The translations under genes and the position numbers were made by a program. Under the pieces are notes generated by a model that saw nothing but the letters and a program-made list of their open reading frames with translations, made no database searches and was not told the origin of the DNA. Positions 1,381 to 16,847 of a stretch of 64,000 nt of DNA are shown in pieces. The first letter of the stretch is position 1. Every line of letters begins with the position of its first letter. The stretch is from Rhodothermaceae bacterium (GTDB taxonomy: Bacteria > Bacteroidota > Rhodothermia > Rhodothermales > Bin80): positions 1 to 64,000 of the forward strand of contig VXSC01000047.1 of the NCBI GenBank assembly GCA_009838195.1, read 5' to 3'.

Positions 1381-1704
1381 ATGCTACTTCATCGAATACG
1401 ATTCCTGTCCTCTGCAGTTGTGATCGGGTCTGTCATGGTCCTGCTTCCCGTCCTTGCCGATGCCAGCGGTGTCGGAGGTGTCAGGGTTGCAACCTCCACT
1501 GTATCCAAGATCGTTGGGTTGCTCACTGGTGACTTGGCCACGGCTGCGTTCCTCTTGATCATTGTTCTGGGCGGTCTCGCCTGGTGGGTAACCCGCTCCA
1601 GCCGTGCCGGCGAAATCCTCGGCCGGACCGTGATGGGGGCCGTAATCATCTTTGGAGCCGTCCAGATCAGTGAGTTCTTTTCCTTCCAGGGCGCTGTCAT
1701 CTAA
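1381..1704 (+). CDS. trbC: Conjugative pilin, TrbC/VirB2 family
   Basis: This small membrane protein of 107 residues has an N-terminal signal-type segment (residues about 8-24, ending LADASG) and two further hydrophobic stretches separated by a short polar loop, the standard VirB2/TrbC layout. Family members are processed and polymerised into the conjugative pilus. A GTG 33 bases upstream would add 11 residues; I prefer the ATG because the signal peptide then starts with a short positive region. It is the first gene of the trb series and its stop overlaps the next start. A TraF-type peptidase encoded at 14902-15468 may process it, possibly to a cyclic pilin as in RP4; that is an inference. 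Confidence 0.75.
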   Translation: MLLHRIRFLSSAVVIGSVMVLLPVLADASGVGGVRVATSTVSKIVGLLTGDLATAAFLLIIVLGGLAWWVTRSSRAGEILGRTVMGAVIIFGAVQISEFFSFQGAVI

Positions 1705-2033
1705 TGGAGAACATCCGTGACGCATTAGAGACGGCCCCCGTGCATACATCCCTCCAGCGTCGCCCCACCATGGGTGGATTACCACAGGATGCATTCCTGT
1801 TATTGGCGCTGATCATGATCACGATGGGGATTGCTTCACGCCTGGACCCAAAAGTCCTGGCGGGATGCGGCTTGGCATATTTTGCCCTGCTGCCGCTGCT
1901 TCGGAGGGTATTCGAAAAAGACCCATTCTTCATGGTTGTGCTGCCGCGGGCTCTGAGATATACCCCACGCTATCTGAGGCAGGAAAAAGAGGTCACGCGT
2001 CACTGGCGTGATCGTTTAGCACGAACGCGTTGA
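1704..2033 (+). CDS. trbD: Conjugation protein TrbD/VirB3
   Basis: The product has 109 residues with a hydrophobic hairpin at about residues 28-65 and a basic C-terminus, matching VirB3/TrbD inner-membrane proteins, which associate with the VirB4 ATPase and are needed for pilus assembly. Both ends are coupled: the ATG shares a base with the pilin stop codon (taatg), and its own TGA overlaps the ATG of trbE. Position between pilin and VirB4 is diagnostic in this family. No anomalies are seen. Confidence 0.75.
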   Translation: MENIRDALETAPVHTSLQRRPTMGGLPQDAFLLLALIMITMGIASRLDPKVLAGCGLAYFALLPLLRRVFEKDPFFMVVLPRALRYTPRYLRQEKEVTRHWRDRLARTR

Positions 2034-4456
2034 TGGATCCACTGACATTTGGAATCGGCACAGCCACGGGTGCCGGGACAATTTGGGCGATCAATCGGCT
2101 ACAGCACCTGAAAAGACCAGCCGAGGGACTTGGGGACCTTTTGGGCTGGGCATTCCTGATCGACGAAGGGGTCATCCTAATGAAAGACGGATCGTTTGTG
2201 AGCGGATTTGAACTTGATCCTCCCGATCTGGAAACGACCAGTGCAGCAGAAGCAAACAGCGTAACTGATACCGTTCATGATATGCTGATGCTGCCGGGAG
2301 AAGGATATGGGATTGAAGTCAATGTGCATCGTAGACATAGTACCGAGTATCCGATCCGGGGGAATCATGACTTCCCCACCGCCTCCCTGCAAGCCATGGA
2401 GAATGAAAGGCAAAGGCAATATCAGGAGACCGGAAGTCACTATAGCCTCAGGCGTACCGTCCTTTTTACCTACACCCCACCCCGCGAGCTTTGGTCACGA
2501 TGGGAAATCCCTATGATTCAAGGAGCTCAAAAGGAATTTGACTATGCACAGACCCTGTCTGGATTCAACCGCACCTTAAGTGAAGTTCGGGCACTGCTGG
2601 CCGGGCGGTTTCAAGTGACTCAACTAAGCAGCAGTACCCTCTTAACCGAATGTCACTGTGCACTCACCGGTCAGAATGAGCAAGTGGCCTCTCTTCCGAA
2701 CAGTTATCTCAGTCACACGCTTGCCTCTGATGATTTTCAGACGGGATTTTACCCGGTAATCGGAGGGCAGCATCTTTTTGTGGTTACGATTGCCTCACTC
2801 GGAATTCAGACTCAGGTCGGGGACGGGGCATTCTTTCATCATACTGAGGGCGAGGGTCGCTGGCACATGCGATTCATCGGCATAGATCGGCATACAGCCG
2901 GGCGTCGCATCAAGCGACTGCAAACCAGCTGGTTCCATCAACGACGGGGATTGCGAAAACTGATCGCGCCCGAGGAAGATGGGTTTGAAGATCAGGATGC
3001 CGTGGCCATGCAACACGAAACTGCCTCCGCATATGCAGAATCTGCCAGTGGCCGTGTCCGGTTTGGATACTTCACGAACACCTTCATCCTGCGTGACCCG
3101 CAGATGCAACGTGGCCTGACACGCAGTCAGACGCTTTTACAGGCTTTACGGGACCAGGGATATACGTGCGCTTTGGAATCAATCAACGCAACTGATGCCT
3201 TCATTGGATCGCTTCCCGGCCATGGTTATGCCAATCTCCGTCGTCCCCTTTTATCCAGTCGCAATATTGCACATTTATTCCCGGTCTCCGCACCGTGGAA
3301 AGGAAGTTCAACCTGCCCCAATCCCATGTTCCCGGATGGTAGCCCAGCACTGGCCTGTGCGCGAACGCCGGGCAGCATACCATTTATGGTGAATCTGTAC
3401 CAAGGAGATGTAGGGCACACGCTCGTCATTGGAGCAACTGGTGCTGGCAAGAGTGTGCTCGTTGGATGGCTGGCACTCAATTTTTTACGTTATCCAAAGA
3501 GCAGTGTCCATGTCTTTGATATAGGACGATCTCATCAGATCCCCTGCATGGCTGCAGATGGGACTCACTTTTCATTTGGAACTACAAATCCATTGCAGCC
3601 CCTTCGCCATATTCACGAAGAAGGCGAGAGGTTATGGGCATTAACCTGGCTGGAGACAATCTATGACCTTGCAAACGAGTTGCCAAATGCAGATGGGCGC
3701 TTAGCACTTGCAGATACACTCAATCTCCTTTGTCAATCGCCACCAGAACATCGAACCCTGTCCGCATTTCATCTTCTGTCGCCGCAGCCGTTGCAAAGCA
3801 CGATAGTGCGGTATACTGCAGACAGACCCTATGGTCGACTCTTTGATGGGGATAAAGGAGCGGAAGCGTCCGCACGTATGCAGGTCTATGAACTGGGTCC
3901 AGTACTGGACCAGGGGGATGCCGTTGTGGTTCCCCTGCTTCTGGCACTGTTTCGATCCATTGAGCGCACATTGGACGGGTCCCCAACACTGATTGTGATT
4001 GAGGAGGCCTGGGCAGCTCTTTTACGGTCCCGTTTTGCAGAGCGAATCAAGGCCTGGCTTCTGACACTCAGAAAACATAACGCAGCCGTCCTTCTGGTCG
4101 CCCATTCACCGTCTCAGATTGCTGCCCTCCCGAATGCAGCCCTGATTACGGAGTCATGCCCAACTAAAATTATTCTCCCCAACCCAGAGGCACGGACCGG
4201 AGAAGGGGCAGCTATGTACCGGGCATTGGATCTAAGCCCACGTGCAATCCACATGGTTTCCTCCGCAAAACCAAAGCGAGAGTATTTCTATAAGAGTCCA
4301 GCGGGAAGCCGGCTCTTTGAACTGAATCTTGGGGCGATCGCACGCACATTGCTGATGCCGCTACCCGGCATGAGCGCGGAAGACTCCCGTGCCCACATTC
4401 AGGAAGCCATTCACGATCACGGACACGATTTCTTTCACCATATCAAGTACTCATGA
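2033..4456 (+). CDS. trbE: Conjugation ATPase TrbE/VirB4
   Basis: This 807-residue ATPase powers substrate transfer and pilus assembly at the inner-membrane face of the type IV secretion system. A Walker A motif GATGAGKS lies near residue 467 and a Walker B segment LIVIEEAWAALL near residue 652, followed by the typical HSPSQI region. The N-terminal half has the VirB4/CagE layout. Length matches the TrbE family. The ATG at 2033 overlaps the trbD stop; a TTG three bases earlier is also possible. The end overlaps trbJ by four bases (ATGA). Confidence 0.9.
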   Translation: MDPLTFGIGTATGAGTIWAINRLQHLKRPAEGLGDLLGWAFLIDEGVILMKDGSFVSGFELDPPDLETTSAAEANSVTDTVHDMLMLPGEGYGIEVNVHRRHSTEYPIRGNHDFPTASLQAMENERQRQYQETGSHYSLRRTVLFTYTPPRELWSRWEIPMIQGAQKEFDYAQTLSGFNRTLSEVRALLAGRFQVTQLSSSTLLTECHCALTGQNEQVASLPNSYLSHTLASDDFQTGFYPVIGGQHLFVVTIASLGIQTQVGDGAFFHHTEGEGRWHMRFIGIDRHTAGRRIKRLQTSWFHQRRGLRKLIAPEEDGFEDQDAVAMQHETASAYAESASGRVRFGYFTNTFILRDPQMQRGLTRSQTLLQALRDQGYTCALESINATDAFIGSLPGHGYANLRRPLLSSRNIAHLFPVSAPWKGSSTCPNPMFPDGSPALACARTPGSIPFMVNLYQGDVGHTLVIGATGAGKSVLVGWLALNFLRYPKSSVHVFDIGRSHQIPCMAADGTHFSFGTTNPLQPLRHIHEEGERLWALTWLETIYDLANELPNADGRLALADTLNLLCQSPPEHRTLSAFHLLSPQPLQSTIVRYTADRPYGRLFDGDKGAEASARMQVYELGPVLDQGDAVVVPLLLALFRSIERTLDGSPTLIVIEEAWAALLRSRFAERIKAWLLTLRKHNAAVLLVAHSPSQIAALPNAALITESCPTKIILPNPEARTGEGAAMYRALDLSPRAIHMVSSAKPKREYFYKSPAGSRLFELNLGAIARTLLMPLPGMSAEDSRAHIQEAIHDHGHDFFHHIKYS

Positions 4457-5196: not shown

Positions 5197-5247
5197 CAGG
5201 CACCGAAATACCCCAGTACGGGCCCCCTACCCCAGTGATCCAACTGC

Positions 5248-6156
5248 ATGCAAGCACAACAAGCCATACAGAACTGTGCACCCACGATGTTTTTCGATTG
5301 TGCACAGGAAGTTTTTCGACTGACCACAGAGGCTTGGCTGACCCGTGCGCTGGATGCAGCACAGACACTCTTTCTCAGTTTGGCACTCCTGGAGATTGTG
5401 GTAACCGGCTATATGGTTTGGGCCGGGCGTGGAAAACAGGGGGGAGATCTCATCAGCCAGTTTGCGCTCAAGATTGGCCTATTGGCCTTCGTACTCGGGC
5501 TCTTATCCACCTACCACAGATGGTTGCCCATGATCGCACAGGGGTTCGGGGAAACCGCAGTCTATATCGGTGGCAGCGATGTCTCGCACCTATCCCCTAC
5601 CCATCTCTTAAATGTTGGACTAAGCATGTTGCTCAGTGTTATGCAATCCGTAGGGTTGACCTCTGATCTTGTGACCTCTCTGGCCGTGATTCCGGCACTT
5701 ATCATGCTGCTGTGCTTTGTTGCACTTGCAGCACATCTACTTGTGACGATGATTGAGAGCTATGTGGTTGTCACGGGTGGACTCTTCTTTGTCGGTTTTA
5801 TGGCATTTCGCGGAACGGCTCCTCTCGGCGAAGGATACCTGAAGTATGTGGTCTATATCGGAGTCAAGCTGTTTTTCATTATCCTAATCGCGGGGATTGC
5901 CGCCTCAATCGGGGATGATATGGTGGCACTCCTGCAGTCATATGATAATCTGTGGCTGACGGCTTTCGAGCAGCTGTTCTCCCAAAATCCTGGCGGTGTT
6001 GTGGGCGCGGTGTCTTCCCGGCTGGGGTTTCTATGGTCTATGACGGCAGTGGCTATCTTGTTGGCTGGCTTGGGGCTTCATATGCCTGGACGGATTGCAA
6101 CACAGTTGAGTAATGGCCTGACGATCAATTTCAAGCGTGCACTGGGGAACCTGTAA
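5248..6156 (+). CDS. trbL: Conjugation inner-membrane channel protein TrbL/VirB6
   Basis: This polytopic membrane protein of 302 residues has about six hydrophobic segments, including stretches around residues 45-60, 75-90, 150-175, 180-195 and 205-225. It ends in a short basic tail. TrbL/VirB6 proteins line the inner-membrane translocation path for DNA and relaxase. It lies between trbJ (51-base gap) and trbF (2-base gap), as in RP4-type clusters. It is shorter than RP4 TrbL, lacking the long hydrophilic C-terminal tail. Confidence 0.8.
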   Translation: MQAQQAIQNCAPTMFFDCAQEVFRLTTEAWLTRALDAAQTLFLSLALLEIVVTGYMVWAGRGKQGGDLISQFALKIGLLAFVLGLLSTYHRWLPMIAQGFGETAVYIGGSDVSHLSPTHLLNVGLSMLLSVMQSVGLTSDLVTSLAVIPALIMLLCFVALAAHLLVTMIESYVVVTGGLFFVGFMAFRGTAPLGEGYLKYVVYIGVKLFFIILIAGIAASIGDDMVALLQSYDNLWLTAFEQLFSQNPGGVVGAVSSRLGFLWSMTAVAILLAGLGLHMPGRIATQLSNGLTINFKRALGNL

Positions 6157-6158
6157 TC

Positions 6159-6821
6159 ATGGTGAAGGAAGGCCACCCGTATCTGGAGGGGAGATATGCA
6201 TTCGAGCGGCTCTTTGGCGATCTCGCCCGAGGCAGACGCTCCTGGCAGTCCGTAGCCTTTCTTGCACTGCTGCTGAATCTCGTACTCACTGCGGGATATA
6301 TCCATTTGGCTTCACAGCAGAAGGTGGTCCCGTATGTGGTGGAACTGGATGCTCTGGGTGAGATGCGCGCAGTGGGCGAACTATCGGTGCGCGATGTGCC
6401 AGAGCGAGCAATCACCTCCACGCTGCGCAGATTTGTACATAACCTGCGAACGGTTCCTACCGATGCCCGTCTGTTGAATGTACGCCTACAGGATGCACGT
6501 ACGCATGTGCATGGCCGCGCTGCAAAGACACTGGTAACGGACCTAGATCGTGATCGGGAAAACCTGGAACGTATGCTTGAGCGTGGGGACACCCGTTATG
6601 TGACCGAAATCACCAGCGTCCTAAAGGTACCCGGCGAAGGGATCTTGTACCGGGTATCCTGGCGAGAACTCCTCCGGGTTGGGCATGAGGAGCGCGTATC
6701 GGCATACGAAGGGCATTTTCAGGTTCGAGTTAAATCTCCAGAAGATGAAGAAACGCTGGACAATAATCCACTTGGCATCTACATCATGGACTACGCACTG
6801 ACAGAAGTGAGCACGCTCTAG
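6159..6821 (+). CDS. trbF: Conjugation assembly protein TrbF/VirB8
   Basis: The 220-residue protein has a cytoplasmic N-terminus, a single membrane helix (about residues 30-50) and a periplasmic VirB8/TrbF domain beginning at KVVPYVVELDALGE, which is a typical family opening. VirB8 proteins are bitopic scaffolds that nucleate the secretion complex. The C-terminal part ends with the NPLGIYIMDY signature strand. The gene is the last of the first trb block; an intergenic stretch with inverted repeats follows before the DNA-processing genes. Confidence 0.85.
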   Translation: MVKEGHPYLEGRYAFERLFGDLARGRRSWQSVAFLALLLNLVLTAGYIHLASQQKVVPYVVELDALGEMRAVGELSVRDVPERAITSTLRRFVHNLRTVPTDARLLNVRLQDARTHVHGRAAKTLVTDLDRDRENLERMLERGDTRYVTEITSVLKVPGEGILYRVSWRELLRVGHEERVSAYEGHFQVRVKSPEDEETLDNNPLGIYIMDYALTEVSTL

Positions 6822-6840
6822 TTGAGACAAGCTGAGGGCG

Positions 6841-6873: not shown

Positions 6874-6952
6874 AAGATGTGTCTTCCATCAACTCCCCCC
6901 TCTCCGTCTGCTTTGTTCAAAGAGTAACATTTTAATGGCTTGGTTTGCCATC

Positions 6953-6970
6953 CTTGTGCGTACGTACAAG
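6953..6970. promoter_or_regulatory. 18-base near-perfect palindrome before the RHH gene
   Basis: The sequence cttgtgcgtacgtacaag is self-complementary except for one pair. It partly overlaps catccttg (6949-6956), which resembles the P-type nick-region core with one extra base. It could be the binding site for the downstream ribbon-helix-helix protein, part of oriT, or both. Confidence 0.4.
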
Positions 6971-6990
6971 AAACTATCCAACCCCCGGTC

Positions 6991-7290
6991 GTGGACAAAA
7001 AAGAGCCAGCAATTAAGGTTACTGTTAGTACTCGTCTAACACTACAACAGAGGCAGGTGCTAGAGCGCCGGGCACAAAGTATGGGTATGAATTTATCGGC
7101 TTTCTTACGGGGTTTCATTACGAACTCCAAACGAACTGTCGAAGAGATCCTGGCCCGCGAATGGGTATCGGTTGCACTCCAGCTTCGAAAATTGCAATCC
7201 GGTGATAGTGACGACACAGAATTCCAAAGGATTCTGGAACAGCTGAAACAACTCATTCAGCGTACAACTTCGGGGCGGGACACAGATTAG
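6991..7290 (+). CDS. Ribbon-helix-helix relaxosome accessory protein, MobC/TraJ-like
   Basis: This small protein opens with a strand and helix pair, IKVTVSTRLTLQQRQVLERR and then MGMNLSAFLRGFI, the pattern of ribbon-helix-helix DNA-binding proteins that help a relaxase bind oriT and often repress their own operon. A basic or polar C-terminal helix follows. The start is uncertain: GTG at 6991 leaves the fold intact, and a TTG at 6940 would add 17 residues that run through a palindrome. It is encoded 9 bases before the relaxase, which supports the relaxosome role. Confidence 0.65.
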   Translation: MDKKEPAIKVTVSTRLTLQQRQVLERRAQSMGMNLSAFLRGFITNSKRTVEEILAREWVSVALQLRKLQSGDSDDTEFQRILEQLKQLIQRTTSGRDTD

Positions 7291-7299
7291 GATATTTCG

Positions 7300-8298
7300 A
7301 TGATTTGTGCGAGTCGACTATCACAAAACTTTCATGCGGTTGCCCGCTATCTGGAGTCACCTAAATCCCATCGCGAGGATCGTGTCCGGGTTGCATGGAT
7401 TGAAGGGCGTAATGTGATCTCTGATGAAAATCTTCAGGCCGCCGCCCGAGAAATGAATCTGATTGCAACAGCAGACCCCCGTGTCAGACGCCCGGTTCTG
7501 CACATGTCCATCTCCTGGGCACCGGATGATGATCCGACCAGAAGTCAAATGGCGGAAGTGTCCGACCGGGTACTTGCAAAGCTCAACCTTCAGGAGCATC
7601 AGGCTATGCTTGTTGCGCATGGGGATGAACACTATGCGCATGTGCATGCGATAGCGAATCGTGTTCACCCAATCACTCGGCGGACTCGCACGTTGGGTTT
7701 CTTTTACAGGGACATAGAGGAAACACTGCGAAAAGTGGAGCGAGAAATGAACTTCCGCGAAACTCCAGGGCATCGTTATCAACTTCCAGGACAAGTTCCC
7801 CCGGATCGGCGTGAATCGCTTTCCAAACATGCTCACAAAGCGACCCAGTCAAGAGGAGAGGTGCCGTTTCAGGTGCTCGTGCGTGATGCTGCAGAGACAG
7901 ACTTTGATGCAGCGAGCAGTTGGGAGAATTTACACGCACGGCTTGATCAACACGGACTCCGGCTATTACCCAGAGGAAGCGGCCTGGTGGTAACCGATGG
8001 TCATGAATACGCAAAATGCAGCAGCGTTGCCAAGAACGCCTCTCTACGTAAACTGGAAGCACGCTTTGGTGAATCCTGGCGCAGCGCCGAGGATATCTCG
8101 CTAGGTCAACAGGTCCAGAAACTCAAGCGAGTGAAGATTACGGACCTAACCGCAATCGGTAGACAATCTATCGCCCGTGAATTCATACAGTTGGACAAGA
8201 AAGCACCTGGACTCAAGGCCAAACTAGGCCAAGCAATCTACCAGTCATTGAAAGTGCTGGCAAATGACGAAAGACAACGAGGGGATCTTGGACTCTAA
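7300..8298 (+). CDS. MOBP-type relaxase
   Basis: The 332-residue protein nicks DNA at oriT and is transferred attached to the strand. A likely catalytic Tyr17 sits in ARYLES. Motif II is near H68 (HMSIS). The metal-binding motif III is H114-V-H116-AIAN-RVH, matching the relaxase/mobilisation nuclease family (PF03432-like). The rest, from about residue 170, is helical and less conserved. Its gene lies inside the trb series, between trbF and trbG, rather than in a separate mobilisation operon. It overlaps the next gene by 35 bases in another frame. Which subfamily of MOBP it belongs to cannot be settled by eye. Confidence 0.8.
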   Translation: MICASRLSQNFHAVARYLESPKSHREDRVRVAWIEGRNVISDENLQAAAREMNLIATADPRVRRPVLHMSISWAPDDDPTRSQMAEVSDRVLAKLNLQEHQAMLVAHGDEHYAHVHAIANRVHPITRRTRTLGFFYRDIEETLRKVEREMNFRETPGHRYQLPGQVPPDRRESLSKHAHKATQSRGEVPFQVLVRDAAETDFDAASSWENLHARLDQHGLRLLPRGSGLVVTDGHEYAKCSSVAKNASLRKLEARFGESWRSAEDISLGQQVQKLKRVKITDLTAIGRQSIAREFIQLDKKAPGLKAKLGQAIYQSLKVLANDERQRGDLGL

Positions 8299-8632
8299 AC
8301 CCCGTAGTCTCCGAGACCGAGCACAGAAAGTCTCAACGGATCATATCCGCAAGGAGTTGGCACCGGTTCTTGAGGCACTCAAAGGAAATCAAATGGACCT
8401 GCAAACCTGTGTCCGTCAAATGAAGATGCTTCTGCATGTCCAACAGGAGCCTTGGAAAAAAGCGGGGACGATGTTGTGGGGGATTGTTCTGGGCGTGCTC
8501 CTGTTTGCACTGCTACAGCCCAGAGTTCAGTACACCCATGATGCATGTGCACTGGGAAATAAGATCATGGCAGCCTCGTCGACATTGTCCGACTCCGAAC
8601 TTGCCCTGATCGAAAGAATCGCCAGCGAGTGA
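8264..8632 (+). CDS. Small membrane protein of the conjugation cluster
   Basis: This 122-residue protein has a basic N-terminal half and a single membrane helix (TMLWGIVLGVLLFALLQ, about residues 68-86), then a short C-terminal tail with one Cys. It starts inside the relaxase 3' end, so the two are probably translated together. I do not recognise the family. Placement between relaxase and trbG suggests a role in docking the relaxosome to the membrane, or it could be an exclusion or lysis-type accessory; this is inference from context only. Confidence 0.6.
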   Translation: MTKDNEGILDSKPRSLRDRAQKVSTDHIRKELAPVLEALKGNQMDLQTCVRQMKMLLHVQQEPWKKAGTMLWGIVLGVLLFALLQPRVQYTHDACALGNKIMAASSTLSDSELALIERIASE

Positions 8633-8714
8633 TCTTGCCTACCTCGTAGCAATCGATCCGGGGCATCTGGTGTACAGCTACGTATGACCTCATCATCTTA
8701 CAAAGGCGAATAAC

Positions 8715-9599
8715 GTGCAGCAGAGTACATTCCTTGCAGTTTTCCTGTTCATCAGCAGCTCGGCTCAGGCGCAGCAGCCAGCTCCAGAGCGTATCGTAAA
8801 TATATCTGGGCCCGTTCAGCCAGCCATCGATCAACAGATCTCCAGTTTCAATACTGGAGGACGGGCAGATGTGCTCCGGCAGTCCGATGTGTTGATTTAT
8901 CCGTATGGGATCTATCAGCCCGTCCTAACCTGTACAGTGCTCCGCGCATGCATTGTCGAACTTCAAGCGGGAGAGACCCTGATCAGTCTGATTGCCGGAG
9001 ATGACCAGCGGTGGTTGATTGATCATACTGCTACGGGGGCGGGAGCAGAAACGGCAATCGTCTCGGTCAAGCCAATTGACCACAATATCACGACGAACCT
9101 CATTATTTCCACGGATCGCCGGGTGTACCATATCACCCTTGACAGCCCACCATATACCACGAATAGGAACGAGTATAATCCCCAACATCAATACACGCGG
9201 CACATCCGATTTTACTATCCTGCTGAACCCAAATTCGCATCTATGCCTGTACGCGAGCGGGCAAATCCGCCCAATGGCCTTTCACTGAAGAAATTGAATC
9301 ACCACTACACTTGGCGGGCAGAAAAAGGATTCCCATGGGTTCCCTCGGCAGTATTTGATGATGGCGAGCGCGTTTATATACGGATTCCATCCCATGCCTA
9401 CTCAGAAGATCAGCCGCTCCTAAGCATTGGAACACGTGGCAATGAGCGCGTCGCTGATTATGTCGTACGTGATGGGTATTTCATTGTGGATGGACTTTTT
9501 GAGCAGGCACGGCTGATTACTGGCGGGATTGCACGCAAGGGCCTCTTCCGAAGGAAACGGCATACGCAGCGCGCCCTGCACCTCTACAGAGAAAAATGA
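8715..9599 (+). CDS. trbG: Conjugation outer-core protein TrbG/VirB9
   Basis: The 294-residue protein has a signal peptide (cleaved after about SSAQA) and the two-part VirB9/TrbG layout. The N-terminal domain contains the family segment LQAGETLISLIAGDDQRW, with strands such as HNITTNLIISTDRRVYHI. The C-terminal domain contains GFPWVPSAVFDDGERVYIR and GYFIVDGLFE. VirB9 forms the outer-membrane core ring with VirB10. GTG at 8715 is preceded by an aaagg ribosome site. The stop overlaps trbI by four bases. Confidence 0.9.
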   Translation: MQQSTFLAVFLFISSSAQAQQPAPERIVNISGPVQPAIDQQISSFNTGGRADVLRQSDVLIYPYGIYQPVLTCTVLRACIVELQAGETLISLIAGDDQRWLIDHTATGAGAETAIVSVKPIDHNITTNLIISTDRRVYHITLDSPPYTTNRNEYNPQHQYTRHIRFYYPAEPKFASMPVRERANPPNGLSLKKLNHHYTWRAEKGFPWVPSAVFDDGERVYIRIPSHAYSEDQPLLSIGTRGNERVADYVVRDGYFIVDGLFEQARLITGGIARKGLFRRKRHTQRALHLYREK

Positions 9600-10552
9600 T
9601 CGGTAACCTGAACGAATCTGAAAATGAAGGAGCCGAATTTGTTGATCCGGTTTCTGTTACACGATTATCTAAACGAAATATCCTAGCCCTAGCGCTGAGT
9701 CTGGCAGGAGTATTACTTGTATTGTTTTTCAGTAGCCGCCGTCAACCAGCAGAATCCAACACCGAGTACGAGTTGGCCCCAGCACCCGCCGTAGATGTAC
9801 TCACATTGGCACCAGTCGAACCGCGTACTCCGATACCCAGCCCCTGGGAGCCCTCCACATCAACACGCCCGGAGCGCTCAGACGAGCGAAAATCCACCTA
9901 TGATCAGGCGCGCCAGTCCCGTGGAGTTCTACATGTTTCGAGTATAGTGAATCCAGACAGTACCCAAGAGCCTTCCATCGTCACAGAAGAAGAGGAAAAC
10001 CTGATCCTTCTGGAAGGTAGCGTGATAACCGCCGCTCTTGAAACAGGCATACATACGGGCCGACCCGGCCCGGTTCGTGCACGAGTTGTGCGGCCAGTCC
10101 GGGACTCCAAACGGCTGGAGCAGGTGCTGATTCCAGCCGGCACACAACTCATCGGTGCAATGGAAGGAACGCTTGCAGGAGAAGAGCCACGGGCGCTCAT
10201 TGTATGGAATCGAATGGTCTTCCCGAATGGAGAGGCCAGAGACTTGCCGGGGCTTCCTGCACTTGACCAAAGTGGTGAGGGAGGGTTACAGGACAAGGTA
10301 AAACGTCATCGAGCCCAACGGTTTGGTAGTGCAGCGATGTTAGCACTGATCGGGAGTGCCACCTCTATCGCCACCGCCACAACGGCTGGCAGTCTGGTGG
10401 GCGGCTCGCTGGCATTGGAATTGTCTCGCACCGCATCCGGTCAACTGGATCGTGGCAGCCGTCGGCAGCCGACACTCATCCTCCGTCCAGGGTATCAGTT
10501 TCTGGTGTACGTGTCCAGAGATATGGCATTTTCGGGACCGTACGTTGAATAG
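9596..10552 (+). CDS. trbI: Conjugation core protein TrbI/VirB10
   Basis: The 318-residue protein has a short cytoplasmic segment, one inner-membrane helix (about residues 29-46), a Pro-rich periplasmic linker (about 55-100) and a C-terminal beta-barrel domain with VirB10/TrbI hallmarks: LLEGSVITAALETGI, IPAGTQLIG, RALIVWNRMVFPNG and the closing LRPGYQFLVYVSRDM. VirB10 spans both membranes and senses ATP use by the coupling protein. An Ala/Thr/Gly-rich antenna helix is at about residues 250-285. It overlaps trbG and the downstream traG start. Confidence 0.9.
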   Translation: MIGNLNESENEGAEFVDPVSVTRLSKRNILALALSLAGVLLVLFFSSRRQPAESNTEYELAPAPAVDVLTLAPVEPRTPIPSPWEPSTSTRPERSDERKSTYDQARQSRGVLHVSSIVNPDSTQEPSIVTEEEENLILLEGSVITAALETGIHTGRPGPVRARVVRPVRDSKRLEQVLIPAGTQLIGAMEGTLAGEEPRALIVWNRMVFPNGEARDLPGLPALDQSGEGGLQDKVKRHRAQRFGSAAMLALIGSATSIATATTAGSLVGGSLALELSRTASGQLDRGSRRQPTLILRPGYQFLVYVSRDMAFSGPYVE

Positions 10553-12356
10553 GACCGCACAGGAACGACTCTACGGCTGGACTGCTCCTCGCTCTCTGGG
10601 GATTCGAAGTGTGTTCACGCTCCTGGTTCTCTTTCCTCTTGTGAGTTGCCAGGTTGCACTTACTGTCATGACACTCATTTGGGGACCACCTGCTGCCGCC
10701 CCTCTCCTTCCCTATGAGCTTACACGGGTGATCCTTTTGAGTGCGGCAGCAGTGACAGCGCCATGGCTGCTCAAACCCTCAATGCGCGCGCCCCTCTTTC
10801 CGCTCATTGCCGCACTCTGTCTGATGAGTATCGTGCCATTATTTAGCCCCCATCATGTATTCCTGGCAATTGTGAATGCTCTAGGTAGACCAGAATTGAT
10901 GGGAGTTGTCATCGGAGCACTTGGGGTCGGCGGGTTGATGGGAATGCTCGTAGTCCGGGGAATCATGACACGGACGGCTGAGCAGCTTTCATTAGCCAAA
11001 GGCTCCACGCAGTGGGGAAATGCACATGCATTGAAAAAACCTACCAAAGGGCTGCTTCTCGGAAAGAAGGGAGTAGACTATCTGCGATATGATGGAGATG
11101 GACATCTGCTTACGGTGGCAGCAACACGCAGCGGAAAAGGAGTCGGAACTGTCATACCCAACCTTCTGAATTACGAAGGCAGCATGCTGGTCACGGATCC
11201 AAAGGGAGAAAACTATGCAGTAACCGCCGCTTGGCGGCGGGATTGTCTGGGACAGAAAATCGTGGCATTGGATCCCTTCGGGCTTGTCGAAACGTGTAAT
11301 ACCAAAGTGGCATCACTGAACCCGATGGATTTTATTGACCTTGATGGAGAAGATTATGTGGAAACGGCAATGATGCTTGCTGATATGATGATCGGCCGGG
11401 GCCGTCAGACCGAAGAATCTCACTGGAGAATGGAAGCAAAAGGGTTACTGCTGAGCTTCATTCTTTATGTGGCAGAAAGGGACGAATTCAAAGATGAACG
11501 GCATCTGATCAAAGTACGCAGTCTTTTGACACAGGACAGTGAGGAGATGGATCAGACATTGAGGACAATGAAGGAAAGTGACCTGCCCCAGGTGAAGGAA
11601 GGGGCCTGCCGGATCGAGCAGAAGGCCGATCGTGAGCGTAGCGGTGTCTTTTCCACCGCGCAAAGCCATACCCATTTCTTGAGCAGCCCCCGAATGCAGC
11701 ATGTACTTACGAGTACGAGCTGCGACCTGGAAGATTTGCGGCGTGGAAAAATGACGGGATATATCATTCTCCCCCGGGAATATCTGAGTACATTTGCTCC
11801 GTGGCTCCGCCTTATGATTAGCAGTTGTTACTATGCGTGCACCCACGGTGCTACAAAAAAATCTCGTCCAGAGCAGCGGGTGGTCTTTCTCCTGGACGAA
11901 TTTGCCAACCTCGGATATATGCGGAATATCAAGGAGGCCGTGTCCTTGGGAGGTGGTTACGGCCTGACGATGTGGCTGATCCTACAGGATCTGGCACAAC
12001 TCAGGCGGGAGTATCACAGTGAATGGGAAAGCTTTTTGGCCAACTGTGACGTAATTCAAGCATTTGCGATTCAGGATCCATTCACAAGCCAGAAGATTGC
12101 GCAGCTTCTTGGAGAAATGTCGATCTGGCAGCGTAGGCTGAATAAGGGAGACAAGCATCAATTCGGGCGGATGCGAGCGGGCTATGAGGAGGGGAGTCGC
12201 CCGTTGTTGAAACCTGATGAACTGCGAAGACTCCACCCTGCCCGCCAACTGCTATTTGTACGTCCGTACCAGCCCGTAGCGGCAGATAAGTTCGTCTACT
12301 ACAAAGATCCATTGACCGCATCCCGTGCACAGCCAAATCCGTTTATTGGTCAATAA
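10545..12356 (+). CDS. traG: Type IV coupling protein TraG/VirD4
   Basis: This ATPase of about 603 residues recruits the relaxase-DNA complex to the secretion channel. Three or four N-terminal membrane segments precede a Walker A motif AATRSGKGVG (about residue 192) and a Walker B motif FLLDEFANLG (about residue 448), both diagnostic for the VirD4/TraG family. The frame is open further upstream inside trbI, but TTG at 10545 fits the 8-base overlap best; a later start would lose the first helix. It closes the plus-strand conjugation operon. A 330-base AT-rich gap follows. Confidence 0.88.
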   Translation: MNRTAQERLYGWTAPRSLGIRSVFTLLVLFPLVSCQVALTVMTLIWGPPAAAPLLPYELTRVILLSAAAVTAPWLLKPSMRAPLFPLIAALCLMSIVPLFSPHHVFLAIVNALGRPELMGVVIGALGVGGLMGMLVVRGIMTRTAEQLSLAKGSTQWGNAHALKKPTKGLLLGKKGVDYLRYDGDGHLLTVAATRSGKGVGTVIPNLLNYEGSMLVTDPKGENYAVTAAWRRDCLGQKIVALDPFGLVETCNTKVASLNPMDFIDLDGEDYVETAMMLADMMIGRGRQTEESHWRMEAKGLLLSFILYVAERDEFKDERHLIKVRSLLTQDSEEMDQTLRTMKESDLPQVKEGACRIEQKADRERSGVFSTAQSHTHFLSSPRMQHVLTSTSCDLEDLRRGKMTGYIILPREYLSTFAPWLRLMISSCYYACTHGATKKSRPEQRVVFLLDEFANLGYMRNIKEAVSLGGGYGLTMWLILQDLAQLRREYHSEWESFLANCDVIQAFAIQDPFTSQKIAQLLGEMSIWQRRLNKGDKHQFGRMRAGYEEGSRPLLKPDELRRLHPARQLLFVRPYQPVAADKFVYYKDPLTASRAQPNPFIGQ

Positions 12357-12522: not shown

Positions 12523-12688
12523 ATAAACAGACAATTGAAATTATCCTTATTTCATGGAACAATTACATGATTATTGGGTACTTGGCTTTGGGTACATAAA
12601 CTTATTATTTATAACGAGGGACAGCCCGCTACCGAGGCTCAAGTGAGCCATGTTTTAGCAATATAGAAGTTAAAAAGTAGAGATTCTT

Positions 12689-13693: not shown

Positions 13694-13968
13694 TGACTTT
13701 CAATAGCAATAATGCTGATGCCAGCTTCTATTACCATGAAGATGCAGCAGCAGACATCGCCCGGATGGATTCATCGGCAATGTATGGCAACCTTGCTGAT
13801 GCAATGAAGAACGCTACGGTGTTATTTCCATCTCCTCAGATTATTCGGACAATTATGGTAAGCCCGCCCTCCCCCATGGATGGACAAGTAGATCCTGATC
13901 CTGCAAAGGGTCGTAGCGACGGGGAAACAAAAACTCCTGGCAATAAAAAATTGATCGCAGAGGGATGA
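13693..13968 (+). CDS. Small unknown protein coupled to the SDH_sah protease
   Basis: This 91-residue protein has an acidic N-terminal half with a predicted helix (EDAAADIARMDSSAMYGNLA) and a Pro/Asp/Lys-rich, probably disordered tail. Its ATG overlaps the protease stop codon (taatg), so translation is coupled and the two are likely partners, for example substrate adaptor and protease or inhibitor and protease. I do not recognise the family. The gene ends 5 bases before the convergent trbB stop. Confidence 0.55.
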   Translation: MTFNSNNADASFYYHEDAAADIARMDSSAMYGNLADAMKNATVLFPSPQIIRTIMVSPPSPMDGQVDPDPAKGRSDGETKTPGNKKLIAEG

Positions 13969-13973
13969 TGTGT

Positions 13974-14921
13974 TCAACCCATCTGCTGAACAGTAAATCC
14001 GCTTGAGGTCCGGCCTGTGACCTTTACGATCTGACGAACACGACGCGCCTTTCCAAAGCCAGAAATCACGACGACAATATTCACTGCACGAAGTACGAGA
14101 TGCCTCTGATCAATGCCGCGTGCCCCCTCACGAGCAAGATCACTTAAGCGCTCCAAAGCCTTATCGGCATCTTCGCCGTGAATTGTAGCACATCCGCCAG
14201 GATGACCAGTGATCCATGCATCCAATAGGTCTTTCGCTGATCTATCGCGTACTTCACCAACAATAATCCGATTGGGGGTGACACGCAGACTGAATTTTAC
14301 CAGCTCCGTCATCCCAATCTGGGGCGTGGTCTGGAGTTGGAGTGAGTCAGTTGCCTGAACAGCGAGCTCAGATGTATCCTCAAGAATGACCAGTCGCTCC
14401 TCCGGGAAAGCATCAACAATGGCCTTCAAGATCGCATTGCAGAGTGTAGTTTTTCCGCTGCCGGTGGGACCGGCAATTAAAATGTTCTGGCGGGATTCGA
14501 TGGCAGATATTAATACTGAATACTCATTTGGCGTTAGCATTGCACTCTTTACATAGTCGTGCAGTGTAGGAATTTGTCGGCATGGTTTCCGGATATTGAA
14601 GGCGGGGCCCGAGGTCAGCGGGGGGATAAATCCCTGGATCCTGCATTTCCCAAGATCGGTTTGCGAGACCGCGGCTGCTAAAGAAGGGTAATCACGATCA
14701 AAACGATTTAAAGTGATTGTGGAAATAGCGCGAAGGAAAGCCTCCGCGCTCTGGGGCAGTAGTGTTACAGAGGTAGCAATTCTTTGCCCGGAAGACATGA
14801 TTGCGCGCACCAGCAGATCTGGATTGATGTAGACCTCTTCAATATTTGGGTCTTGGAGAAGTTTAAGGACCTGAGCACCGAGGTACTGACGGATCAAAGC
14901 ACTAAGGCGTTCTGAATCCAT
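13974..14921 (-). CDS. trbB: Conjugation ATPase TrbB/VirB11
   Basis: The 315-residue hexameric ATPase drives pilus biogenesis and substrate transfer. Visible motifs are Walker A GPTGSGKTT (residues 151-159), the Asp box LVILEDTSEL (about 177-186), Walker B RIIVGEVRD (218-226) and the His box GHPGGCATIHGE (239-250). All key residues are present. In RP4 trbB lies at the head of the trb operon; here it is split off on the opposite strand, downstream of a TraF-type peptidase that it overlaps by 20 bases. Confidence 0.9.
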   Translation of the reverse strand: MDSERLSALIRQYLGAQVLKLLQDPNIEEVYINPDLLVRAIMSSGQRIATSVTLLPQSAEAFLRAISTITLNRFDRDYPSLAAAVSQTDLGKCRIQGFIPPLTSGPAFNIRKPCRQIPTLHDYVKSAMLTPNEYSVLISAIESRQNILIAGPTGSGKTTLCNAILKAIVDAFPEERLVILEDTSELAVQATDSLQLQTTPQIGMTELVKFSLRVTPNRIIVGEVRDRSAKDLLDAWITGHPGGCATIHGEDADKALERLSDLAREGARGIDQRHLVLRAVNIVVVISGFGKARRVRQIVKVTGRTSSGFTVQQMG

Positions 14922-15468
14922 GACCGGTCAAAACATAGTGCGGTGGAGACCCGCAGGGAACAGGGCCATAATATCTGCTGTCATAACTGAGCACACTGTG
15001 TGTGCTGAGCAGAAAGCATGTACCGGGGGACAGCACATGGATTCCTATGGCATTTGGCAGTCGCCTTCCTCTTCGGTCGTGTTGGTAAATGGGGATTTCA
15101 AAACCCCGATACCCCTTTACTTGGATATACCGGTCAGAAACCACCACGGTATCTCCCTGCAAGGCAATGACTGGCTTTCCGATTCGAGTCGAGCCACCAG
15201 GACAAGTGCCCTGGCGCAGGTATCCGCGCTGAACGGCAAATTGACTCAGCGTGTCGGGAAGACATGTACGGAGTACATCGCCACGTTCAAGACTTGCTAC
15301 TTTCGTTATACGGTACAAGCCAAAGGGCAATGAAGCCGATGTATTAACAAAAAGAGGCAAGCTCATCCTGCCGATAGGTAAGGATTGAATCGCAACCACA
15401 ATCAGGAAAAAACCACAGATTGCGAGAACACCTATAAACTGGAGCGTGGGCAGAATGCGGCACCGCAT
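14902..15468 (-). CDS. traF: TraF-type S26 serine peptidase, conjugative pilin maturation
   Basis: The 188-residue protein has one N-terminal membrane helix (about residues 11-30) and the TraF/S26 signal-peptidase core. The serine motif is NTSASLPFGLY with S46 before L-P, and the lysine motif is IGKPVIALQGDTV with K98. The 52-residue spacing equals that of RP4 TraF (Ser37 and Lys89 as I recall). In RP4, TraF trims and cyclises the TrbC pilin. Here it is cotranscribed with trbB and follows the response-regulator gene with no gap. It could be a general signal peptidase, but the GLY after the Pro and the context favour TraF. Confidence 0.8.
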   Translation of the reverse strand: MRCRILPTLQFIGVLAICGFFLIVVAIQSLPIGRMSLPLFVNTSASLPFGLYRITKVASLERGDVLRTCLPDTLSQFAVQRGYLRQGTCPGGSTRIGKPVIALQGDTVVVSDRYIQVKGYRGFEIPIYQHDRRGRRLPNAIGIHVLSPGTCFLLSTHSVLSYDSRYYGPVPCGSPPHYVLTGHGFRTP

Positions 15469-16194
15469 TCAATCCACAATCTTAAAATCTCCAAGTCGAT
15501 ATCCAACCCCCTGTACCTTGAGGATATGCCTGGGCTCAAGAGGATTTTCGTCCAGTTTGCATCGGAGCGCATACGCATGACGATCAATGGTCCGCGTCTG
15601 CAGGTCATGTGGGACCTTCAGGACCCAAACGTTGAATTCGGCTCTTGAAACCGCACGCCCGTTCCGAAATGCCAAGTGACGCAGAACTTTCCACTCCATC
15701 GGTGTCAAATGCACGGGCTGGCCATCTTTTTGCGCGGTACGGGTCTCAAAATTGCAGAGGGTACCGCCCACCTGGACCCGCCCGGGTTGATTTCCGCCGT
15801 AGCGCACACGCCGACAAATCGCTTTCGCCCGGGTCATTAACTCATGCGCATTAAAGGGTTTCCCCATGTAGTCATCTGCACCTGCTTCCAGGCCGCGTAC
15901 GCGGTCCCCCACGGAATCGCTCCCTGAAACCATAATGACAGGGGTGTGACAGCCAAACTTCCGTACTCGCCGTACGAGTGTGATGCCATCCATACCCGGC
16001 ATGGTTACATCCAGAATGGCCACATCAAGGGAGTCTTCGGATTGTATGAAGGTTGCGGCATCGTAACCATTGGCTGTGATGGTGACTTGTGCTCCTTCCT
16101 TCTCAAAGACCCGCTTGATTGCTCTGGCAGTCGCGTCATCGTCTTCAGCGATCAACACTTTGGAAAACGGCTCTGGGGCTGCTGTATAGATCAT
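15469..16194 (-). CDS. OmpR-family response regulator
   Basis: The 241-residue protein has an N-terminal receiver domain (acidic pair EDDD at 17-20, phospho-acceptor D62 in ILDVTMPGMDG, K112 in GKPFN) and a C-terminal winged-helix DNA-binding domain ending in KVQGVGYRLG. It should bind DNA when phosphorylated by the kinase encoded just upstream. Its stop abuts the traF start and its start overlaps the kinase stop, so the kinase, regulator, traF and trbB form one operon. That makes regulation of conjugation the likely role; the target promoter was not identified. Confidence 0.88.
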   Translation of the reverse strand: MIYTAAPEPFSKVLIAEDDDATARAIKRVFEKEGAQVTITANGYDAATFIQSEDSLDVAILDVTMPGMDGITLVRRVRKFGCHTPVIMVSGSDSVGDRVRGLEAGADDYMGKPFNAHELMTRAKAICRRVRYGGNQPGRVQVGGTLCNFETRTAQKDGQPVHLTPMEWKVLRHLAFRNGRAVSRAEFNVWVLKVPHDLQTRTIDRHAYALRCKLDENPLEPRHILKVQGVGYRLGDFKIVD

Positions 16195-16847
16195 TTTGAG
16201 TCAAAAAAGATGTTTTGTGGAAGAATGATGCGGATGACCGTTCCAACCCCCACCGTACTGGCCACTTCAATCCGTCCACCATGTGCATGAACAATTTCCT
16301 GGGCAATCGAGAGCCCCATACCATTGCCGGGGACGGTGGAATCTCCTCGAAAATGAGGCTTGAAAATATGGGGCAGATATTTTGACGGGATCCCATATCC
16401 ACGGTCTCGCACTCTGAGTTGCATTCCACTGGATTGCAGCTCTGCAGCGATCACAATTTGGGTAGGTTCGCTATAGTTGACTGCGTTATCAAGCAGATTA
16501 GTGAGTACGCGTCCCAGGGCAGGCCCATCTCCCCAAATGGAAGGCAACTCTGTTTTTGCGTGCAACCGAAATGTATAACCTGGATGCAGCTCCTGGTATA
16601 TGGATGCTGTGTCTCTGAGTAAGGCTACGATATCTACTTCACTGCACCTTTCGGAAGCTGCATGATTTTCGAGCACACTACGTGCAATTTGAACGAGACG
16701 ATCAATTTGATCTGCGATGACCGCGTGACAGGCGTGACGTTCAGGGTCATCTGGTTTCATCATGCGCAATCGGTCATTATAGAGTGCGATCGCGTTCAGA
16801 GGGGTTTTCATATCGTGAGACAAGCTTGCAAGGCGTAGTTGGGTCAT
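16191..16847 (-). CDS. Histidine kinase without sensor or membrane domain
   Basis: At 218 residues this is only the catalytic core. The HisKA H box has H11 (SLSHDMKTP), the N box has N121 (NLLDNAVNY), the G1 box is DRGYGIP and the G2 box is GNGMGLSIA. An in-frame stop lies four codons upstream of the ATG, so there is no hidden sensor domain in the same frame. It must be cytoplasmic and may take its signal from a partner protein. The ATGA overlap with the regulator gene shows tight coupling. The absence of input domains is unusual and may reflect truncation or a dedicated partner. Confidence 0.85.
   Translation of the reverse strand: MTQLRLASLSHDMKTPLNAIALYNDRLRMMKPDDPERHACHAVIADQIDRLVQIARSVLENHAASERCSEVDIVALLRDTASIYQELHPGYTFRLHAKTELPSIWGDGPALGRVLTNLLDNAVNYSEPTQIVIAAELQSSGMQLRVRDRGYGIPSKYLPHIFKPHFRGDSTVPGNGMGLSIAQEIVHAHGGRIEVASTVGVGTVIRIILPQNIFFDSK

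What the first reader, a model, noticed from the sequence alone, without database searches (positions are those of the whole stretch)
1381..16847. Compact conjugative module with relaxase inside trb genes and trbB split off with TraF and a two-component system
The order trbC-D-E-J-L-F, RHH, relaxase, small protein, trbG, trbI, traG is contiguous, while trbB and traF lie on the other strand directly behind a kinase-regulator pair. This is an unusual layout compared with RP4-type clusters and suggests that pilus maturation and TrbB are under signal control.
Basis: partly seen in the sequence, partly recalled or inferred. Interest (0 to 1): 0.55.

Follow-up and report, generated by a model that had tools for sequence, protein, structure and literature searches.

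The report
Resident, dispersed chromosomal conjugation-type machinery
A bacterial family that includes a sponge symbiont appears to carry its gene-transfer machine as an ordinary inherited chromosomal trait, cut into blocks at different chromosome sites that share one type of promoter, rather than as a jumping element.

Summary
The gene order at 1381-16847 is confirmed: a P-type (RP4/Ti-like) T4SS with a MOBP relaxase and, on the other strand, an overlapping operon kinase-regulator-TraF-TrbB. It does not look like an integrative element: no integrase among the 40 window proteins scanned, no bracketing repeats, and across 16 genomes of the same Rhodothermales family it behaves as a vertically inherited chromosomal trait. 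Conjugation-type VirB11 occurs in 16/16 family genomes but 8/98 others of the order; protein distances and trees track RpoB. In other genera the blocks trbC-virB8 (A), relaxase (B), virB9-traG (C) and TraF-virB11 with or without kinase-regulator (D) mostly lie at separate chromosomal sites, some shared between genera. Relaxase catalytic residues are kept. A two-part promoter motif about 80 bp before the start codon precedes A, B, C and a fimbria-like/ExbB-ExbD cluster at 18987-28485 (E), but not D. So the blocks look like one regulon; the likeliest regulator is the sensorless kinase/OmpR-type pair in D (inferred). DNA transfer and an oriT are not shown. Closest precedent: Rickettsia's scattered vertical T4SS.

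The parts
1301..1357 (+). two-part promoter motif before block A (box 1 1301-1318, box 2 1348-1357), 80 bp before the trbC ATG
   Evidence: 37.8 bits, best + strand site of the window; a training site; box 1 also found by the whole-genome pattern search
1381..1704 (+). trbC (VirB2-like pilin)
   Evidence: PF04956 4.8e-11
1704..2033 (+). virB3/trbD
   Evidence: PF05101 2.2e-4, below curated cut-off; 67-81% identical homologues in the same place in six genus genomes
2030..4456 (+). trbE/virB4 ATPase
   Evidence: PF03135, PF19044; best NCBIfam models TrbE, below their cut-offs; only PF03135 match in the genome
4453..5196 (+). virB5/trbJ-like
   Evidence: PF07996 7.8e-5, below curated cut-off
5248..6156 (+). 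trbL/virB6
   Evidence: PF04610 2.6e-19
6159..6821 (+). trbF/virB8
   Evidence: PF04335 5e-27
6912..6967 (+). two-part promoter motif before block B (relaxase operon)
   Evidence: 36.4 bits, a training site; box 1 also found by a trbC-only matrix, 0 of 178 control regions as high
6991..7290 (+). NikA-like ribbon-helix-helix accessory protein
   Evidence: PF21983 1.5e-5, just below cut-off
7300..8298 (+). MOBP relaxase; motif I tyrosine and HxD/HxH motif invariant in 12 aligned family relaxases
   Evidence: PF03432 1.3e-23, PF22863; NF041893 below cut-off; alignment
8264..8632 (+). 122-aa protein with a hydrophobic stretch (read by eye), overlaps relaxase end
   Evidence: no Pfam or PHROG family; 50-70% identical homologues behind the relaxase in the six other genus genomes where that stretch is held, 33% and 30% in G010 and G015
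8634..8689 (+). two-part promoter motif before block C (virB9)
   Evidence: 15.9 bits, 81 bp before start, not a training site; above all 225 control regions
8715..9599 (+). trbG/virB9
   Evidence: PF03524 1.6e-37
9596..10552 (+). trbI/virB10
   Evidence: PF03743 8.7e-40
10545..12356 (+). traG/virD4 coupling protein (start codon tentative, TTG overlapping trbI)
   Evidence: PF02534 9.7e-81
13974..14921 (-). trbB/virB11 ATPase
   Evidence: PF00437 1.7e-29; TIGR02782 TrbB_P 281 bits, cut-off 304.6
14902..15468 (-). traF pilin-processing peptidase
   Evidence: PF10502 4e-10; TIGR02771 TraF_Ti above cut-off
15469..16194 (-). OmpR/PhoB-type response regulator
   Evidence: PF00072, PF00486; alignment of 11
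16191..16847 (-). sensorless histidine kinase (HisKA + HATPase)
   Evidence: PF00512, PF02518; alignment of 11; upstream in-frame stop
18906..18962 (+). two-part promoter motif before cluster E
   Evidence: 11.7 bits, 81 bp before start, not a training site; above all 225 control regions; 24.7-bit site before the same cluster in another genus
18987..28485 (+). cluster E: 166-aa and 222-aa proteins, three DUF4402-type proteins, 257-aa and 750-aa proteins, ExbB, ExbD-like and further ORFs; fimbria-like, function not shown
   Evidence: same gene order in G003, G006 and G010

Best explanation
The region is one local arrangement of a chromosomally resident conjugation-type system that this Rhodothermales family has inherited vertically. 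It comprises a P-type T4SS channel, coupling protein, pilin and pilin peptidase, and a MOBP relaxase with a ribbon-helix-helix partner. The genes form four blocks (A trbC-virB8, B relaxase, C virB9-traG, D kinase-regulator-traF-virB11) that are contiguous here but scattered in other genera. In this genus A, B, C and a fimbria-like/Exb cluster (E) carry the same two-part promoter motif and so look like one regulon; D does not carry it. Mechanism: a cytosolic signal reaches the sensorless kinase; the phosphorylated OmpR-type regulator switches on the shared promoter at A, B, C and E; pilin is matured by TraF; the relaxase nicks DNA and the coupling protein feeds it into the channel, moving chromosomal or co-resident mobile DNA to neighbouring cells. 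Shown: gene content, dispersal, vertical inheritance, purifying selection, relaxase residues, shared motif. Inferred: that the regulator binds the motif, that DNA is the substrate, that transfer happens.
For: Vertical: Mantel r against RpoB 0.90-0.98 for VirB4, VirB11, relaxase, VirB6, TraF, kinase and regulator, 0 of 2000 permutations each; VirB4, VirB11 and RpoB trees agree in their starred clades. Family trait: VirB11 at 200 bits or more in 16/16 family genomes against 8/98 others of the order; VirB4 14/16; relaxase 14/16. Dispersed: G011 (single contig) has A+C at 0.15 Mb, relaxase at 2.18 Mb, D at 2.20 Mb; G014 (one 2.88-Mb contig) has A 2.64, relaxase 2.09, D 2.57 Mb. Fixed sites: relaxase block in the same neighbourhood in G010, G012, G011, G015 (three genera); D in the same place in G010 and G012. 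Selection: dN/dS 0.04-0.36 in 34 gene-pair comparisons. Relaxase catalytic residues invariant in 12 aligned. Regulon: motif trained on 12 A/B promoters; C 6/6, E 3/3, A of G008, G010, G011, G012 and C of G011 score above all 225 control regions, D 0/12. In G010, blocks A, C and E on three contigs each carry it (26.3, 31.2, 24.7 bits).
Against: No oriT found (only looked for by eye). No transfer or binding data. The motif-to-regulator link is inferred: G010, G012 and G013 lack the pair beside TraF-VirB11, yet G010 has strong motifs; whether they hold the pair elsewhere was not searched. Block B of five other-genus genomes lacks the motif and a sixth (G014) has a weak box 1 only (14.4), and the RHH genes of G004 and G009 lack it too; G014 A is near control level (4/225). 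Within-genus C and E sites are weak (8.7-17.0 bits; control maximum 8.4), so G002 C and G012 A (8.7 each) pass narrowly. Two strong sites have no tie to the system: before a methylase-like gene in G012 (25.0) and antisense inside a cluster E gene of G010 (24.2). VirB4 is in two pieces in G011 and has a stop in G006. TraG within the genus does not track RpoB significantly (248/2000). In the VirB11 and VirB4 trees the element-like copies of G004 and G009 join at unresolved forks, so the resident copies are not shown to be one clade against them. VirB4 and relaxase were not found in G007 and G008; G008's contig ends inside trbC.
Confidence: 0.6

Rival explanations
1. An integrative and conjugative element (or its decayed remnant) inserted beside the aldose epimerase gene, with integrase lost or outside the scanned genes.
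For: Compact full set of conjugation genes incl. relaxase and coupling protein; a related contiguous element-like cluster exists in G004 and G009 (L078, L104; 44% VirB4); partial duplicates of traG, virB11, trbC and RHH-relaxase in some genomes show past movement.
Against: No bracketing direct repeat in 1-19000 (seed 12, minimum 20); no integrase among 40 window proteins; blocks separated by hundreds of kb in G011 and G014; shared chromosomal neighbourhood across genera; distances track RpoB.
Confidence: 0.15
2. A resident T4SS domesticated for protein secretion (to sponge cells or competing bacteria), with the relaxase retained for another job.
For: Known vertically inherited scattered or chromosomal T4SS (Rickettsiales, Patescibacteria) are described as protein exporters or as serving roles other than conjugation (PMC3158045 and PMC12102498, passages read); the fimbria-like cluster shares the motif.
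Against: A relaxase is found in 14/16 genomes with invariant catalytic residues in the 12 aligned; in five of the seven genus genomes tested its operon carries the same promoter as the channel; a ribbon-helix-helix partner precedes it. These point to a DNA substrate. No effector was looked for.
Confidence: 0.22
3. The shared motif belongs to an alternative sigma factor or an unrelated regulator; the kinase-regulator pair only co-regulates TraF-VirB11 or something else. (An alternative for the regulator step only; it can be true together with the main explanation's other parts.)
For: Strong motifs in G010 where no kinase-regulator pair lies beside TraF-VirB11; no motif before the pair itself.
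Against: The pair is the only regulator seen beside T4SS blocks in 12 of 16 genomes; box 1 resembles two half-sites 10-11 bp apart as OmpR/PhoB-type regulators use (recalled, not tested).
Confidence: 0.45

Closest known systems
Rickettsia vir homologue (rvh) T4SS 'archipelago' (PMC2653234; abstract and other passages read)
   Same: Vertically inherited VirB/D4-type T4SS whose genes are rearranged into separated chromosomal islets.
   Different: Different phylum; the word relaxase does not occur in that paper's main text; here a MOBP relaxase with its accessory protein, a TraF peptidase, a linked two-component system and a shared promoter motif are present.
Patescibacteria chromosomal T4SS (PMC12102498; passages read)
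   Same: Widespread, chromosomal, phylogenetically distinct T4SS treated as part of the cell's biology.
   Different: There most clusters lack a relaxase and the main type is that of monoderms (FATA); here P-type with a relaxase in 14/16 genomes.
RP4 / Ti-plasmid Tra-Trb conjugation systems (MPF type T with MOBP)
   Same: Same protein families: TrbB, C, D, E, F, G, I, L and a VirB5/TrbJ-like protein, TraF, TraG, TraI-like relaxase, NikA-like RHH.
   Different: TraF-TrbB form their own operon with a kinase-regulator pair; the relaxase lies between virB8 and virB9 here and elsewhere on the chromosome in other genera; the top-ranked plasmid VirB4 is 36% identical.
VirA/VirG of Ti plasmids and RteA/RteB of CTnDOT (recalled, not looked up)
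   Same: Two-component control of DNA-transfer genes.
   Different: Those kinases have sensor regions and the systems are mobile (recalled); here the kinase is a bare catalytic core inside the TraF-TrbB operon of a resident system.
Neisseria gonorrhoeae ssDNA-secreting T4SS (PMC8716806, search listing only)
   Same: T4SS with a relaxase, TraI, that secretes ssDNA: the proposed work here is alike.
   Different: That system lies on one genetic island and is F-type (both recalled); no such activity has been shown here.

Membership tests
Conjugation system, MPF type T with MOBP relaxase | VirB4 ATPase, coupling protein and relaxase present | tested here: met
Conjugation system, MPF type T with MOBP relaxase | T-type accessory set (VirB3, 5, 6, 8, 9, 10, 11) | tested here: met
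   all found; VirB3 and VirB5 just below Pfam cut-offs
Conjugation system, MPF type T with MOBP relaxase | relaxase catalytic tyrosine and metal-binding histidines | tested here: met
   invariant AxYL and HxD...HxH in 12 aligned family relaxases; G003 and G005 (split or partial) not aligned; motif names recalled
Conjugation system, MPF type T with MOBP relaxase | oriT that the relaxase nicks; DNA transfer | not tested
   upstream regions only read by eye; transfer needs an experiment
Integrative and conjugative element | integrase/recombinase within the element | tested here: inconclusive
   none among 40 window proteins scanned with Pfam; many ORFs beyond 33 kb were not scanned; left flank is only 1 kb because the contig starts there
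Integrative and conjugative element | flanking attachment repeats | tested here: not met
   no direct repeat of 20 nt or more bracketing the module in 1-19000; shorter repeats not tested
Integrative and conjugative element | genes travel as one contiguous unit | tested here: not met
   blocks dispersed in G011, G014 and on separate contigs in G010, G012, G015
Vertically inherited scattered T4SS (Rickettsia type) | vertical inheritance of components | tested here: met
   TraG within the genus not significant
Vertically inherited scattered T4SS (Rickettsia type) | genes in separate chromosomal islets | tested here: met
   in other genera; clustered in the window genome
Vertically inherited scattered T4SS (Rickettsia type) | no relaxase reported; duplicated VirB4/8/9 and multiple VirB6 | tested here: not met
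   relaxase in 14/16; single VirB4 in G000
OmpR/PhoB two-component system | phospho-acceptor His, ATP-binding domain, receiver Asp, winged-helix output | tested here: met
OmpR/PhoB two-component system | sensor region in the kinase | tested here: not met
   HisKA starts at residue 6; in-frame stop upstream

The most novel reading that the evidence does not exclude
A bacterial family maintains conjugation as a cellular trait rather than as a mobile element's trait: a dispersed, vertically inherited chromosomal machine with its own relaxase, switched on as one regulon (pilus, channel, relaxase, adhesive fimbria-like cluster) by a cytosolic two-component pair, and used to exchange chromosomal DNA within dense symbiont populations in sponges.
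Probability: 0.4. Interest if true: 0.88.

Novelty: new variant of a known kind. Interest (0 to 1): 0.62.

Why it matters
Conjugation is normally explained as the selfish trait of plasmids and integrative elements; the resident or scattered T4SS precedents read here are described as exporting protein or mostly lacking a relaxase. A resident system that keeps a conserved relaxase and ties its scattered parts together with one promoter would be a candidate for conjugation selected for the cell itself. The promoter motif and the linked regulator make that directly testable. I found no description of it in the held papers (searches; most subscription journals are missing from that library).

Tried and rejected
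Loss of the T4SS in G007 and G008 with the D operon kept (which would have meant an independent role for D): rejected, because in G008 the contig ends inside trbC at the same chromosomal site as in G004, and in G007 the contig starts before that point.

Reading the window as an integrative element: rejected as above.

Structure prediction of two large cluster E proteins: mean pLDDT 49 and 34, so no fold search was made; sequence searches against solved structures gave one hit at E=1 and none. 'Fimbria-like' therefore rests on DUF4402 neighbours (one of the three is above its Pfam cut-off) and on reading the sequences.

A single-box matrix trained on seven trbC promoters did not separate the virB9 promoters well (1 to 45 of 178 control regions as high in six; the seventh, G010, was scored on the wrong strand; the controls there still held two virB9 and one cluster E promoter). 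Only the two-part motif did. Its second part was fitted on the training set (offset chosen per site), which favours the training sites; C, E and other-genus sites were not in the fit. The 225 controls are 150-bp stretches before ORFs of at least 120 codons in 16 loci, after a list of eight known A, B, C, E positions was excluded; G005 was left out of training as nearly identical to G003; some start codons (G006 C, G014 A among them) were chosen by hand.

Rows left out elsewhere: relaxase comparison without G003 and G005 (split or partial) and VirB11 without G005 and G013 (partial); VirB4 tree without the short pieces of G011 and G013.

oriT: regions before the RHH gene were only read by eye; no conserved nick-like sequence was apparent. 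Not a systematic test.

Full report
WHAT IS THERE. The proteins are P-type: the best NCBIfam models are TrbE, TrbF, TrbG_Ti, TrbB_P, TraF_Ti and the TraI/MobP relaxase (only TraF exceeds its curated cut-off). The four minus-strand genes overlap or abut: kinase - regulator - traF - trbB. The kinase is a bare HisKA-HATPase core of 218 aa with an in-frame stop four codons upstream. In the ten other kinases aligned the catalytic core also begins near the start; alternative upstream starts would add at most about 60 residues (G003). An SDH-type protease and a 91-aa ORF lie between traG and trbB.

WHOSE GENOME. The window is the first 64 kb of a 331,847-bp contig of a 3.0-Mb, 48-contig assembly. Named relatives found with VirB11 are Rhodothermales/Rhodothermaceae/Bacteroidota MAGs. 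One is bin80 of the sponge Aplysina aerophoba (PMC5649159, passages read); a sponge origin of others is my reading of isolate names. The family as held has 16 genomes (G000-G015), 10 of them in the genus (G000-G009).

NOT A PLASMID OR ICE PATTERN. VirB11 of the conjugation type (200 bits or more) occurs in 16 of 16 family genomes (G005 and G013 as contig-end pieces) and 8 of 98 other genomes of the order; at most 19 candidates per genome were scored in that search. VirB4 occurs in 14 of 16 and the relaxase in 14 of 16; G007 and G008 lack both, but G008's contig ends inside trbC. The top-ranked plasmid VirB4 is 36% identical among 72,556 plasmid records. Protein distances follow RpoB: Mantel r 0.92 (VirB4, 14 genomes), 0.95 (VirB11, 14), 0.90 (relaxase, 12), 0.94 (VirB6, 14), 0.93 (TraF, 14), 0.98 (kinase and regulator, 12 each), none reached in 2000 permutations; VirB9 0.97 (7 genomes, 7/2000) and TraG 0.91 (7, 36/2000). 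Within the genus all are high except VirB9 (0.61, 25/2000) and TraG (0.43, 248/2000, not significant). VirB4, VirB11 and RpoB trees agree in their starred clades; the element-like copies of G004 and G009 join the first two at unresolved forks. dN/dS is 0.04-0.36 in 34 gene-pair comparisons; two TraF comparisons gave no value because the aligned stretch ran into a stop.

THE BLOCKS ARE SCATTERED. The blocks are A (trbC to virB8), B (RHH-relaxase-small protein), C (virB9-virB10-traG) and D (kinase-regulator-traF-virB11). The window has all four in 15.5 kb. G009 has A-B-C together and D on another contig. G006 has C-B divergent from D, A elsewhere. G001 has A and D convergent on one contig and B-C on another. 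Outside the genus, G011, a single contig, has A+C at 0.15 Mb, the relaxase at 2.18 Mb and D at 2.20 Mb; G014 has A, relaxase and D at 2.64, 2.09 and 2.57 Mb; G010, G012 and G015 have A, relaxase and D on separate contigs. The relaxase block lies in the same neighbourhood in G010, G012, G011 and G015 (three genera): on one side a Gfo/Idh oxidoreductase and a PEP-hydrolase-like gene, on the other a TonB receptor, followed by aconitase in three of the four (for G012 it was not in the stretch held). G014 does not share it. D lies in the same place in G010 and G012, and two neighbours of D are shared by G014 and G015. By parsimony the separate relaxase site is old and the tidy cluster in the window is secondary; I did not check whether that old site is empty in the window genome.

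THE TWO-COMPONENT OPERON. Kinase-regulator-TraF-VirB11 occurs in this order in 9 of 10 genus genomes (G005 only has a VirB11 piece) and in G011, G014 and G015; in G010, G012 and G013 TraF-VirB11 stand without the pair beside them. In 21 further loci (L115-L127, L220-L227; L120 is the second cluster of G004, the rest lie outside the family; the last eight have only 1.5 kb flanks) other T4SS genes lie within about 3 kb of VirB11. One regulator-like hit (L119, about 9 kb away) and one kinase-like hit (L125, about 8 kb away) were seen, none in this operon form.

A SHARED PROMOTER. Reading the upstream regions showed a common sequence before trbC and before the RHH-relaxase operon. A matrix from seven trbC sites alone put five of seven RHH upstream regions above all 178 controls; the two that fail, G004 and G009, are genomes where B directly follows A (but in the window B also follows A and still has its own box). 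Adding a second element about 28 bp downstream gave a two-part motif, YTTGYYCAAANYGTARCA - N28 - GYGTA, about 80 bp before the start codon. Trained on 12 A/B sites, it was tested on sites not used: virB9 (C) 6 of 6, cluster E 3 of 3, trbC of G008, G010, G011 and G012 and virB9 of G011 all exceed every one of 225 controls (maximum 8.4; the lowest two, G002 C and G012 A, score 8.7). trbC of G014 does not (4/225 as high). D 0 of 12 (best G006, 10/225 as high), RHH of G004 and G009 0 of 2, the SDH protease gene 0 of 1. In the window the four best plus-strand positions are those before A, B, C and E; one minus-strand position inside a cluster E gene scores 13.4, more than the E site (11.7). Whole genomes: the degenerate box-1 pattern has 30 matches in 12 of 16 genomes against 10 for the reversed control pattern; the window genome has three, two of them here. 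Among all held loci (2.67 Mb with overlaps) 19 sites distinct in sequence score 24 bits or more. Seven are not training sequences: five precede A, B, C or E genes (G005 trbC, near-identical to G003; a truncated relaxase copy in G004; A, C and E of G010), one precedes a methylase-like gene in G012, one is antisense inside a cluster E gene of G010.

CLUSTER E. Genes 18987-28485 (three DUF4402-type proteins, ExbB, ExbD-like and others) keep their order near T4SS blocks in G003 (1.4 kb from D) and G006 (2.2 kb from C), and a 46% homologue of one lies about 7 kb from the A+C cluster in G011, there without the motif. In G010 the cluster is on its own contig with a 24.7-bit motif about 100 bp before its first gene. 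In the element-like T4SS of G004 and G009 a homologue of its first gene lies between traG and traF, and Exb homologues stand beside the trb genes. I read it as the system's surface-adhesion partner; this is inference.

HOW IT MOST LIKELY WORKS. A cytosolic cue acts on the sensorless kinase; the OmpR-type regulator activates A, B, C and E; TraF processes the TrbC pilin; VirB4/VirB11/TraG power the channel; the relaxase nicks a chromosomal or co-resident origin and the strand is exported. The blocks, their descent, selection and shared motif are shown; the regulator-motif link, the DNA substrate and the act of transfer are inferred. The main weaknesses are that G010 has strong motifs but no pair beside TraF-VirB11, and that block B carries a clear motif only within the genus.

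AGAINST WHAT IS KNOWN. Scattered, vertically inherited T4SS are known in Rickettsia ('archipelago of five islets', abstract and passages of PMC2653234), and an ICE census calls scattering relatively rare in other proteobacteria (PMC3158045, passages). The Patescibacteria T4SS is chromosomal but mostly without relaxase (PMC12102498, passages). The present system differs in keeping a conserved relaxase, in a promoter shared by its parts, and in the linked sensorless two-component operon. Hence: new variant of a known kind.

Noticed in passing
window 18987-28485; L067, L018, L079, L273: Fimbria-like cluster with ExbB/ExbD, gene order conserved in G003, G006 and G010 and carrying the same promoter motif as the T4SS blocks; identity of the large proteins unknown.
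   Followed up: partly
L094 (G007:C18) 2-298 and 8269-8670; L074, L075, L071, L076: Partial copies of traG 3' ends, virB11, and an RHH-relaxase-virB10 piece in several genomes; in G007 two traG 3' ends bracket about 8 kb with an IrrE/DUF4411 pair and a ThiF/JAB protein (E1-E2-like). Looks like repeated recombination at T4SS genes.
   Followed up: partly
L023 11020-17953; L240 2860-9589: Gaps between or beside T4SS genes hold variable cargo: an IS66 transposase and a C5 methyltransferase (G003), a HEC-01-like pair and an N6/N4 methylase with a GHKL ATPase (G009); possible defence hot spot.
   Followed up: partly
L078 (G004:C65) and L104 (G009:C9): A second conjugation-type cluster (44% VirB4, 49-50% VirB11); in G004 contiguous with a divergent relaxase and, by eye, a ParA-like gene nearby; probably a genuine mobile element.
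   Followed up: partly
window 105-1004; L017 694-6366; L073 4582-9705; L070 154-3798; L021 16-2334: Large proteins ending like the window's DUF4397/Por-tail protein lie beside or near T4SS blocks in several genomes.
   Followed up: no
L278 (G002:C32) 6448-7327: A 267-aa protein with, by eye, a trbC-like leader and the T4SS promoter motif (two-part 20.5 bits, box 1 23.0 in the first matrix), otherwise unlike trbC.
   Followed up: no
L277 (G003:C132) 4035-4480: Second trbC-like copy with the full promoter motif (36.5 bits), apparently frameshifted.
   Followed up: no
L275 (G012:C92) 621 and L274 (G012:C86) 10803: Promoter motifs before a DNA methylase-like gene (25.0 bits) and before a gene that by eye looks LexA-like (18.1 bits, box 1 23.1).
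   Followed up: partly
window 12689-13693: SDH-type ClpP-like serine protease between traG and trbB, best phage-family match phrog_11747 (1e-51, unknown function).
   Followed up: no
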